Assembly: GCF_020181615.1 (NCBI RefSeq) | Contig: NZ_CP084029.1 | Span: 2,922,520-2,986,519 of the forward strand | Reading direction: 5' to 3' | From: [Mycobacterium] crassicus | GTDB lineage: Bacteria > Actinomycetota > Actinomycetes > Mycobacteriales > Mycobacteriaceae | DNA: 64,000 nt | In this document: positions 3,386-8,648 of the stretch, piece after piece | Numbering within the stretch: the first letter of the stretch is position 1 | How the letters are laid out: each line of letters starts with the position of its first letter | Program-made: the position numbers and the translations under genes | The notes under the pieces: generated by a model | Seen by the model: the letters and a program-made list of their open reading frames with translations, nothing else | The model's database searches: none | What the model was told of the DNA's origin: nothing

Positions 3386-3469
3386 GGCATCGCAGCCTAT
3401 CGCCTCACGATGGGAACTGCGAGCAAATCGTGGAGCCCGCAACCTGGCAAACTCCTGCGACATCCGGCG

Positions 3470-3475
3470 TAGTCT
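3470..3475 (+). promoter_or_regulatory. Probable -10 hexamer of CDGP gene, copy A
   Basis: TAGTCT fits the mycobacterial TANNNT -10 consensus and lies 10 bases before an in-frame ATG at 3485. The same hexamer is at 8261-8266 in copy B. Confidence 0.4.
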
Positions 3476-3508
3476 CTCGGCAACATGACGGATCGGAAGG
3501 GGACAGCC

Positions 3509-3814
3509 GTGAAGCGCTACCTCACCGGTGGGCTGACCACCGTGTTGGGGGCCGCGGCGCTGATGACCGGCCAGCTGATCGCCTCGGCACCGGCCGCCCA
3601 CGCCGGCTGTCAGGACAACCCGCTGCTGTTCTTCTCCACCGCCCAAAAGTGCGACGGCCCGATTCAGCCCGACGGCACCTGGCAGCGCTGCGTCATCTAC
3701 TACTATGAGCCACCGAAATCACCGCCCTCGCAACAGGACTGCCACTCGATGGGACCGGAACGCGATTATCCGTTGCACTCGTTCTACATGCCGCAGACCC
3801 ACATCGACCCGTAG
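3509..3814 (+). CDS. Secreted CDGP-motif protein, copy A
   Basis: 101 aa from GTG 3509, which has a good ribosome site (AAGGGGACA) 5-6 bases upstream; an in-frame ATG at 3485 would add 8 residues. A Sec signal peptide (MKRYLTGGLTTVLGAAAL, cleavage after APAAHA) leaves a mature domain of about 67 aa with four cysteines (GCQ, KCDGP, RCV, DCH), probably two disulfides. The KCDGPIQPDGTWQRC core matches what I remember as the mycobacterial CDGP domain family, whose function is unknown. It differs from copy B by one residue (Met to Leu in the signal peptide). The mature protein is exported and unanchored as far as the sequence shows. Confidence 0.85.
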   Translation: MKRYLTGGLTTVLGAAALMTGQLIASAPAAHAGCQDNPLLFFSTAQKCDGPIQPDGTWQRCVIYYYEPPKSPPSQQDCHSMGPERDYPLHSFYMPQTHIDP

Positions 3815-3820
3815 CGGCAC

Positions 3821-3857
3821 TCAGTCCATCAGCCGGGCGGCCACCGTCGCACCGAGC
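3821..3857 (-). pseudogene. Remnant of flavodoxin-family gene (C-terminus)
   Basis: The reverse strand encodes LGATVAARLMD and a stop, equal to the end of the intact gene at 8612-9067 except for one residue. It is cut off at CGCACCGAG, a 9-base word that also occurs inside dapB, and dapB-derived sequence follows directly. Confidence 0.85.
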
Positions 3858-4186
3858 GCACCGGAACACCGCCGACGTCGGCGCCACGCGCTGCCGGTAG
3901 GCCCGTGTGATGGCATCGGGGTTGGGCGGCAGGCCTTTTCAAGCCTCGGCGATCAGCACCGCCACACCGGGTTTGGCCGCCAACCAGGAACGAACCTGGG
4001 CGATCCTCTCCTCAGTGAAACCGGTAGTGCCGCCAACCGCATGAATCCCGTTGTCGATCAAGAACTTCAGGTTGTCCATCACGACGTCGGGGTGGGTGAA
4101 GCCGATCACCACCTCAGTCCCGCCGTCGGTCAACAGGCTCAGCGCATCACCGGCGTCGACCTCGCCCGACAAAGTCAGATCCTCGT
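3858..4186 (-). pseudogene. dapB remnant with internal deletion and nonsense codon
   Basis: A decayed copy of the intact dapB at 9528-10265. The segment [18 protein letters not shown] through [20 protein letters not shown] is nearly intact. A 150-bp in-frame segment (original 9811-9960) is missing between two copies of GCGATCAGC. Next, an Arg codon has become TGA at 3939-3941, where the original [11 protein letters not shown] reads [14 protein letters not shown]. Both ends are truncated: the 5' part is replaced by a glyoxalase-like fragment and the 3' part runs into the flavodoxin remnant. No functional dihydrodipicolinate reductase can be made from it. Confidence 0.9.
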
Positions 4187-7900: not shown

Positions 7901-8143
7901 AACGGCGGCGCACCGGGTACGGCGCAAAACGGCGCTGTCACCGGCACGGCCGGCACCGGTGGCATGGCCGGTGGCGCAGGCACTGGCGGTGATGGCGGTG
8001 CCGCCGGGCCCGGCGGTGCCGGCGGGACGGCAACGACAAACGGCGGCAGCGACCCGGGCACAACGGGCCAAACCGGCCAACTCGGCACTGCCGGCTCGCA
8101 GGGCCCGGACGGTACGGACGGCCAGCCCGGCCTACCCGGCTGA
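4934..8143 (+). CDS. PGRS-repeat protein without PE domain, exported
   Basis: 1069 aa from ATG 4934, preceded by a good AAAGGGGAT ribosome site; an in-frame ATG at 4838 lacks one. Residues 1-49 form a long signal peptide: GRKRRGFLLSG has a twin-arginine RRxFL core, then a hydrophobic stretch and PPAQA before the mature DVEDLL. Three short DP-x-SW-x-x-LF units follow, then an unknown segment of about 100 aa with no PE (Pro-Glu) domain. LIGNGAMGTPTDPNGGNGG marks the equivalent of the PGRS linker. From about residue 175 to the end it is Gly-Gly-x/Asn-Gly-Gly repeats broken by short unique stretches, with no C-terminal domain. Probably a cell-surface protein; its role is unknown. It is flanked by 395-bp direct repeats and followed by a strong hairpin. 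Confidence 0.88.
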   Translation: MAHRGETRGNYHSTAGRKRRGFLLSGSTSAVGAFLAFGLTPLALPPAQADVEDLLDPTSWGTLFDPSSWSALFDPGLHGGADLSSALAATSSDPLAWLNGTVSGTAQPTDFGDQIADSFQTDFWLPIHTMLQDWINSPLGMQIDNAINTATGVFLIGNGAMGTPTDPNGGNGGFFFGDGGHGWNSTEVGEAGGNGGDAGGFGNGGDGGSGGLGADGGNGGNGGETWGNGGDGGTGGTGTFAEGGSGTGGDGGNGGSSGAASDVFGAFAAGNGGDGGKGGTGAAGGNGADGVGSGSSGGNGHTGGLGGNGGNGGAGGTVIGTGGTGGGGGTGGAGGNGGNGINGAAGTFANAGTGNGQLGGNAGNGAAGGGGGKGGAGGHTNLFGSPTDQGVGGTGGHGGDAGVAGKGGAGATGVTGHPDGGAGANGGTGGNAGAGGAGGTGQTTGNAGAHGASSVGGNGGDGGGGLGGSNGSAPGANGTDGGNGGHGGNGGAGGLNVDNTHAAQGVGGNGGKGGGGGNGVAGANGTTGDNGGNGAAGTAASPNGTNGTNGGTGTQGQDGGSGGKGGNGGAAGTGSTNGAVGAGGVGGNGANGGIGGNGGNGGTGGNGYNAAADPGATPGTSGGNAGDGGAAGTGGQGGDGGSGGKGGFDGNGANQATSGVNGDGGQGGNGGIAGLGGDGGSGAAGDEAHPDGGAGGNGGDPGNVTATGGPGGAAGVGGTGGHVGDAGSDGTVPQIVSGNGGNGGAGFDASDLSNGMNGGNGGAGGDGGSLGNGGNGGVGGDGAIGVTGVNPPPSSFATNGDPGTPASGNGSATGGNGGDGANATVPGEAGGSGGSGGTAKSDGSGGTATGGNGGAGGNGDLGAPGGVGGAGGNATGEGSQSTVIGGNGGDGGNGGTGVQGGTGGSGGTGGAGGTGGGLLANTAGNGGNGGTGGTGGTGATGEIGATGGAGGTAGAGKADGSGGIATGGNGGDGGTGGTGGTGGTGGDGGNGGAPGTAQNGAVTGTAGTGGMAGGAGTGGDGGAAGPGGAGGTATTNGGSDPGTTGQTGQLGTAGSQGPDGTDGQPGLPG

Positions 8144-8150
8144 CCTACCG

Positions 8151-8194
8151 CACTCCAGTGCCCCGCACGCAACGGCGAGCGGGGCACTCGAGTG
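8151..8194. terminator. Strong hairpin after PGRS gene
   Basis: CACTCCAGTGCCCCGC (8151-8166) pairs with GCGGGGCACTCGAGTG (8179-8194) over 16 bp with a single C-C mismatch and a 12-base loop. It begins 8 bases after the PGRS stop. There is no U-tract, which is normal for mycobacterial terminators. It could act in both directions. Confidence 0.75.
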
Positions 8195-8213
8195 CAGGTT
8201 GCGCGCAGTCGGT

Positions 8214-8255
8214 TCAGCCCTTAAGGTCCAGAATCTTGTTGAGCAGGTCCAGTTC
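8214..8255 (-). pseudogene. 13-codon remnant of the 69-aa gene at 3176-3385
   Basis: Reads ELDLLNKILDLKG and stop, against ELDLLNKILPFKG in the intact copy. Upstream coding sequence is lost and the fragment joins the CDGP promoter region directly at TTCCGG. This is a deletion of about 240 bp relative to the left copy. Confidence 0.85.
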
Positions 8256-8648
8256 CGGCGTAGTCTCTCGGCAACATGACGGATCGGAAGGGGACAGCCG
8301 TGAAGCGCTACCTCACCGGTGGGCTGACCACCGTGTTGGGGGCCGCGGCGCTGCTGACCGGCCAGCTGATCGCCTCGGCGCCGGCCGCCCACGCCGGCTG
8401 TCAGGACAACCCGCTGCTGTTCTTCTCCACCGCCCAAAAGTGCGACGGCCCGATTCAGCCCGACGGCACCTGGCAGCGCTGCGTCATCTACTACTACGAG
8501 CCACCGAAATCACCGCCCTCGCAACAGGACTGCCACTCGATGGGACCGGAACGGGATTATCCGTTGCACTCGTTCTACATGCCGCAAACCCACATCGACC
8601 CGTAGCGGCACTCAGTCCATCAGCTGCGCGGCCACCGTCGCACCGAGC
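8254..8648. repeat. Direct repeat, right copy (395 bp)
   Basis: The right partner of 3463-3857, 7 mismatches and no indels. Here the repeat runs on into the intact flavodoxin-membrane protein-dapB operon, so this is the ancestral right-hand context. Confidence 0.92.
8300..8605 (+). CDS. Secreted CDGP-motif protein, copy B
   Basis: 101 aa from GTG 8300 with the same ribosome site as copy A. The mature protein is identical to copy A; four of the five base changes in the coding region are silent and the fifth is Met to Leu in the signal peptide. A signal peptide ends in PAAHA, and four Cys surround the CDGP core. It is convergent with the flavodoxin gene, whose stop lies 6 bases on. Its upstream region is truncated compared with copy A: sequence more than about 7 bases before the TAGTCT -10 hexamer is different, so its expression may differ. 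Confidence 0.85.
   Translation: MKRYLTGGLTTVLGAAALLTGQLIASAPAAHAGCQDNPLLFFSTAQKCDGPIQPDGTWQRCVIYYYEPPKSPPSQQDCHSMGPERDYPLHSFYMPQTHIDP

What the first reader, a model, noticed from the sequence alone, without database searches (positions are those of the whole stretch)
3463..8648. PGRS gene bracketed by two 395-bp direct repeats with reciprocal gene decay
The blocks 3463-3857 and 8254-8648 match without gaps (7 mismatches by hand count). On the left the 69-aa gene is intact but flavodoxin and dapB are broken; on the right dapB and flavodoxin are intact but the 69-aa gene is a 13-codon stump. This fits a tandem duplication of the unit 69-aa gene/CDGP/flavodoxin/dapB around an inserted PGRS gene, followed by complementary loss. 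The flanking repeats leave the PGRS gene removable or amplifiable by homologous recombination.
Basis: partly seen in the sequence, partly recalled or inferred. Interest (0 to 1): 0.75.

Follow-up and report, generated by a model that had tools for sequence, protein, structure and literature searches.

The report
Decayed tandem duplication around PGRS gene
In a relative of the tubercle bacillus a stretch of seven genes was doubled head to tail and each copy then lost different genes, leaving a glycine-rich protein gene between two short repeats through which it could in principle drop out again.

Summary
In detail: 3463-3857 and 8254-8648 match without gaps at 388 of 395 bases. Close relatives are Mycolicibacter. 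The PGRS gene is not an insert between two copies: it belongs to the duplicated block, VOC(glyoxalase)-PGRS-69aa-CDGP-flavodoxin-TPR-dapB, held once by the nearest relative, MYC340. The duplication joint is at 4176-4185, where the dapB remnant meets the start of VOC. The repeat's edges are later short-homology deletions (252 and 1070 bp; a third of 150 bp lies in dapB). Trees and shared derived bases date the duplication after the split from MYC340; 20 of 20 other genomes with a close match showed one copy. Upstream of the window the left copy carries a different, longer PGRS gene and two glycosyltransferases, so two versions of the locus were probably joined. Two related genomes have other cargo here between repeats of flavodoxin. 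Loss of PGRS through the repeats is plausible but not shown. The events are of known kinds; the case is unusually legible.

The parts
1..1252 (-). GT-A: N-terminal part of a GT2-TPR glycosyltransferase; it continues left of the window across a 100-N run
   Evidence: tblastn 63% to GT-B; 407 of 407 residues identical to the 565-aa database protein P0007, whose C-terminus matches the other side of the N run at 59 of 60
1254..2987 (-). GT-B: GT2-TPR glycosyltransferase (577 aa), part of the left copy only
   Evidence: PF00535; no match in the MYC340 genome
3176..3385 (-). intact 69-aa gene (left copy)
   Evidence: 90% identical to the MYC340 protein; no Pfam or NCBIfam family
3463..3857 (+). left copy of the 395-bp repeat
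   Evidence: 388 of 395 identical to 8254-8648
3485..3814 (+). CDGP1 (likely start GTG 3509)
   Evidence: PF24238; sister of CDGP2, support 100/99; start by comparison
3848..4185 (-). dapB remnant in two pieces (3848-3957, 3948-4185), left of it 37 bp of flavodoxin; flavodoxin, TPR and much of dapB deleted
   Evidence: alignments; deletion joints; sister of the intact dapB, support 96/91
4176..4185 (.). joint of the tandem duplication: about ten bases shared by dapB and VOC (9 of 10 equal)
   Evidence: sequences compared; overlap of matches
4176..4356 (-). 5' fragment of the VOC (glyoxalase-type) gene of the right copy
   Evidence: match to MYC340 and to the intact upstream VOC gene; the intact copy is PF00903
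4838..8143 (+). PGRS-B, PGRS-repeat protein without a PE-domain match (start conserved with MYC340 at 4934)
   Evidence: PF21526 only; 90.8% identical to the MYC340 protein over the whole length
8147..8199 (.). strong hairpin after PGRS-B, possible terminator
   Evidence: -40.0 kcal/mol for 8144-8216; also in MYC340
8214..8256 (-). stump of the 69-aa gene (right copy) after a 252-bp deletion at TCC
   Evidence: shares 2 derived bases with the left gene
8254..8648 (+). right copy of the 395-bp repeat, with CDGP2 (8276-8605; likely start GTG 8300)
8612..9067 (-). intact flavodoxin-like gene (right copy)
   Evidence: PF03358; 97% identical to MYC340
9064..9519 (-). intact TPR-domain gene, absent from the left copy
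   Evidence: TPR matches below the curated cut-offs; 95% identical to MYC340
9528..10265 (-). intact dapB (right copy)
   Evidence: PF01113, PF05173; TIGR00036

Best explanation
A chromosomal block (VOC 5' part - PGRS - 69-aa gene - CDGP - flavodoxin - TPR - dapB; 6.3 kb in MYC340) became tandemly duplicated in this lineage after it split from MYC340. The joint formed at about ten near-identical bases shared by dapB and VOC. The units then lost complementary genes by deletions between short repeats: the left lost flavodoxin, TPR and dapB; the right lost the 69-aa gene and the native sequence upstream of CDGP. Every gene of the block keeps at least one intact copy. Shown: the anatomy, the joints, the single-copy relatives, the sister relation of the CDGP and dapB copies. 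Inferred: the left unit carries another PGRS gene (PGRS-A) and two glycosyltransferases because two versions of the locus were joined, most simply by one homologous exchange in or near VOC and one illegitimate joint at dapB/VOC. Inferred: a crossover between the 395-bp repeats would remove 4791 bp with PGRS-B and leave one full set of the other genes.
For: MYC340 holds each gene once in the order VOC-PGRS-69aa-CDGP-flavodoxin-TPR-dapB, colinear with window 4176-8256 (88%) and 8254-14404 (92.5%). Upstream the chromosome matches MYC340 up to VOC, and the start of VOC recurs at window 4176. Joint and three deletion points show shared bases of 10 (9 equal), 3, 9 and 10. CDGP copies are sisters 100/99, dapB remnant and dapB 96/91. 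Shared derived bases: 14 in CDGP, 3+1 in dapB, 2 in the 69-aa stump. Of 396 genus genomes 21 had a close match; this one had two copies, the other 20 one (the two best candidates per genome were scored).
Against: PGRS-A is no recent copy of PGRS-B (60% identity over the last ~450 residues), and the two VOC pieces share 0 derived bases in 178 sites (P about 0.01 under the pooled rate), so a plain duplication does not explain the left end. The AU test does not reject VOC-A and the VOC fragment as one clade (p 0.189), so foreign origin of VOC-A is not proven. One duplication date does not fit all pieces (p 0.0007 with the 4-fold rate, 0.04 with a faster rate). No donor of PGRS-A or the glycosyltransferases was found.
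Confidence: 0.7

Rival explanations
1. Old tandem array with concerted evolution: both units predate the split from MYC340, MYC340 lost the left unit by recombination between the two VOC copies, and gene conversion keeps the CDGP, 69-aa and dapB pieces alike in this genome.
For: Explains that the VOC fragment falls with MYC340 and not with VOC-A (88/83), that PGRS-A and PGRS-B are old homologs with a shared upstream element, and that the CDGP pair looks younger than the dapB remnant.
Against: Needs conversion over three separate pieces, one of them a decaying remnant with 27 private changes, and loss in MYC340; the other 20 close genomes show one copy.
Confidence: 0.13
2. The native locus was the PGRS-A version and the PGRS-B unit came in later from a MYC340-like donor.
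For: PGRS-B N-terminal part differs from MYC340 by 8.9% at 4-fold sites (7 of 79) against 16.1% in five neighbouring genes (121 of 751); VOC fragment nearest MYC340.
Against: The 69-aa stump, CDGP2 and dapB of the right unit share derived bases with the left unit and not with MYC340; 7 of 79 is a small sample.
Confidence: 0.1
3. Assembly artefact: one repeat or one joint is a misassembly.
For: A 100-N run lies just left of the window; sibling genomes of this group are described as SPAdes short-read drafts (passages of PMC10844392).
Against: No N in the window; longest exact run between the repeats is 116 bp, below the largest k-mer (127) named in that paper; the repeats have different flanks and private changes; one database protein spans the N run.
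Confidence: 0.05

Closest known systems
PE_PGRS17/PE_PGRS18 tandem duplicate of M. tuberculosis (PMC1762029; abstract and outline read)
   Same: A tandem duplication involving PGRS genes with evidence of gene conversion between the copies.
   Different: There the conversion is in the PE_PGRS genes themselves; here the near-identical repeats are ordinary flanking sequence (CDGP), the two PGRS genes are distant homologs, and no PE domain was found.
Homology-facilitated illegitimate recombination (PMC3240628; start of abstract seen in the listing)
   Same: One end homologous, the other illegitimate, adding rather than replacing DNA, would give this structure in one step.
   Different: Inferred from the product only; the homologous end is not proven.
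Duplicate genes with complementary loss (general knowledge, recalled)
   Same: Each copy has lost what the other keeps.
   Different: Nothing beyond the particular genes.

Membership tests
Tandem segmental duplication with complementary loss | Same gene order in both units, head to tail, with a novel joint between end and start of the unit | tested here: met
   Order and joint at 4176-4185
Tandem segmental duplication with complementary loss | Copies are each other's closest relatives; related genomes have one | tested here: met
   CDGP and dapB trees; 20 of 20 other close genomes single
Tandem segmental duplication with complementary loss | All parts of the unit equally related between copies | tested here: not met
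   VOC pieces and PGRS genes are not recent copies of each other; so a plain duplication is not the whole story
PE_PGRS protein family | N-terminal PE domain followed by PGRS repeats | tested here: not met
   PGRS-B: only PF21526; PGRS-A: no Pfam match at 1e-3. PGRS-repeat proteins without a PE match
Homology-facilitated illegitimate recombination | One homologous and one illegitimate joint | tested here: inconclusive
   Illegitimate joint seen; homologous end in or near VOC only suggested
Transposon or insertion sequence | Transposase and terminal inverted repeats | tested here: inconclusive
   No transposase or integrase among the genes scanned with Pfam; no inverted repeat of 60 bp or more in 1-14000; shorter ones not examined

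The most novel reading that the evidence does not exclude
The VOC-to-dapB region is a standing exchange site in Mycolicibacter where incoming DNA is added next to doubled pieces of the flavodoxin/CDGP genes; in this genome it acts as a two-allele store of PGRS genes (PGRS-A with two glycosyltransferases, and PGRS-B) that repeat recombination can cut back to one, with the CDGP repeats kept alike by conversion.
Probability: 0.12. Interest if true: 0.6.

Novelty: new member of a known kind. Interest (0 to 1): 0.38.

Why it matters
It shows, with each joint readable to the base, how a mycobacterial chromosome can come to carry two versions of a PGRS locus and how redundant neighbours are pruned. 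PGRS genes are usually discussed as repeats that recombine among themselves; here ordinary flanking genes supply the homology. Two related genomes show other cargo between doubled pieces of a neighbouring gene at the same place, so the locus could be used to test how genes are added in this group.

Tried and rejected
Glycosyltransferase-PGRS linkage: of 13 GT loci fetched for this, 3 had a PGRS-like frame in the stretch; the 8 nearest to GT-B (59-62% by local tblastn) had none. No general link is claimed.

A family-wide PGRS leader: the element upstream of PGRS-A and PGRS-B was found in 3 of 65 loci, and those 3 are the ones from which the model was built.

A donor for the left unit: none found. 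The best PGRS-A N-terminal match in the other 20 close genomes was 57% and elsewhere; in the protein database the best GT-B relative outside this genome was 69% (8000 candidates scored, best 120 listed).

A clade test for the VOC pieces did not reject them as sisters. A CDGP paper search returned none.

Species name not settled. Genome length (4,871,803), absence from the named list, and 100-N runs like those in G316 (by length MYC017) would fit MYC098, described as related to MYC340 by rpoB and 16S rRNA; this is inference.

Full report
Observation. The two blocks match over 395 bases without gaps and with 7 mismatches. In this genome the block gave three matches, these two and a 42-base weak one. 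The left 69-aa gene, and the right flavodoxin and dapB, are intact. The left dapB remnant aligns to the intact dapB as two pieces, 86% over 121 columns and 93% over 238; the right 69-aa stump aligns over 43 bases at 84%. Pfam: CDGP (PF24238), PGRS repeats (PF21526) without a PE match, FMN_red, DapB.

Where it is. The 14 closest named loci are Mycolicibacter. The nearest strain is MYC340, 88 to 92.5% identical at the locus.

The single-copy state. In MYC340 the order is VOC - PGRS - 69aa - CDGP - flavodoxin - TPR - dapB, each once in the stretch held. Window 4176-8256 and then 8254-14404 run colinear with it. So the right unit is the ordinary locus minus a piece of the 69-aa gene, and the PGRS gene of the finding (PGRS-B) is part of it, 90.8% identical to its MYC340 counterpart over the full length. 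In other relatives the interval between VOC and the 69-aa gene usually holds a DUF222 gene: of 13 loci looked at (12 genomes; L008 and L102 are one), 8 full-length frames were scanned and 8 of 8 are DUF222. Of the remaining genomes two had shorter frames, one none full-length, and MYC340 has PGRS. In G097 the two genes are adjacent.

The left unit. A further 20 kb upstream showed that the chromosome matches MYC340 up to VOC (93%), and that the start of VOC appears again at window 4176. Between them lie an intact VOC gene (PF00903), a 1604-aa glycine-rich gene PGRS-A, two GT2-TPR glycosyltransferases, the intact 69-aa gene, CDGP1 and the dapB remnant. The dapB/VOC joint at 4176-4185 is ten bases, nine of them equal in both genes. 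Three deletions shaped the rest: 252 bp in the right 69-aa gene at TCC, 1070 bp in the left copy between flavodoxin and dapB at CGCACCGAG, 150 bp inside the left dapB at GGCGATCAGC. The edges of the 395-bp repeat are thus deletion joints, not ends of the duplication. The right-hand deletion also removed most of the sequence between the 69-aa gene and CDGP that relatives keep, so CDGP2 may lack its own promoter (inference).

When. CDGP1 and CDGP2 are sisters (support 100/99), and so are the dapB remnant and dapB (96/91), with MYC340 next. Derived bases shared by both copies and absent from the relatives compared: 14 in CDGP, 4 in dapB, 2 in the 69-aa stump, none in VOC. Of 396 genus genomes, drawn from a larger group, 21 had a close CDGP match; this genome had two, the other 20 one each (two best candidates per genome scored; some of these assemblies are in many contigs and could hide a copy). 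So the copies arose after the split from MYC340. The CDGP pair differs by 7 changes while the dapB remnant has 27 private ones; one date for all is rejected at p 0.0007 with the 4-fold rate and p 0.04 with a faster neutral rate assumed from the intergenic divergence. Conversion between the repeats would explain this; so would extra-fast decay.

What does not fit a plain duplication. PGRS-A is no recent copy of PGRS-B: 60% identity over the last ~450 residues, while over its whole length its best match was another PGRS gene of this genome at 46%. Its best N-terminal match in 20 other genomes is 57% and elsewhere. GT-B has no match in MYC340. The VOC fragment falls with MYC340 (88/83), VOC-A does not, but sisterhood is not rejected (p 0.189). 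The simplest account is that two versions of the locus were joined end to end, homologous on the VOC side and illegitimate at dapB/VOC. An old array with conversion, and later import of PGRS-B, remain as rivals.

A local pattern. In M. longobardus (L007) an Mrr-type restriction gene lies between 205-bp direct repeats of flavodoxin (96.6%), and a DUF4238 gene lies between CDGP and flavodoxin. In genome G333 (L101) a desaturase and a reductase lie between 47-bp repeats of the flavodoxin end (76.6%). In 37 of 42 loci scanned (several from one genome) CDGP and flavodoxin are adjacent; the five others are L007, L101, L080, L084 and L089. L080 is G333 again; L084 and L089 were not looked into. Suggestive only.

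Assembly. The window has no N; a 100-N run lies just left of it, inside GT-A. Sibling strains were described as SPAdes drafts with k-mers up to 127 (PMC10844392, passages; genome table in the correction PMC13270926, whole text). The longest exact run between the repeats is 116 bp.

Literature. A tandem PE_PGRS duplicate with gene conversion is known in M. tuberculosis (PMC1762029, abstract and outline). A review notes proteins with a PGRS domain in M. smegmatis and related Mycolicibacterium (PMC11939664, passages). Searches on PGRS with Mycolicibacter, PGRS with non-PE and signal peptide, PE_PGRS with duplication or conversion, and mycobacteria with tandem duplication or microhomology listed no title or abstract start that describes this locus; the texts were not read and the lists were cut at 15, 15, 15 and 8.

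Noticed in passing
L007:8423-11086; L101:1250-4064: Cargo genes between direct repeats of flavodoxin pieces at the same locus in M. longobardus (Mrr-type restriction gene, 205 bp at 96.6%) and genome G333 (desaturase and reductase, 47 bp at 76.6%).
   Followed up: partly
window 4804-4834 and L098:14713-14743: A ~31-bp element about 100 bp before the starts of PGRS-A and PGRS-B (87% alike, also in MYC340), although the surrounding upstream DNA differs; not found in the other 62 of 65 loci searched.
   Followed up: partly
window 1-2987: Two tandem GT2-TPR glycosyltransferases (about 63-67% alike) whose nearest listed relative outside this genome is 69%.
   Followed up: partly
whole genome G000: Many PGRS-type N-termini in this genome: 44 and 58 matches with the two N-terminal queries; 14 to 43 and 15 to 51 in the 20 other close genomes.
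   Followed up: no
window 8147-8199: Very stable hairpin after PGRS-B, also in MYC340, without a T run.
   Followed up: no
L089 (G356), L084 (G205): Flavodoxin match partial or set apart from CDGP; possibly further inserts at this place.
   Followed up: no
L098:19900-19999: A 100-N run directly left of the window inside GT-A; similar 100-N run in a G316 stretch (L198).
   Followed up: yes
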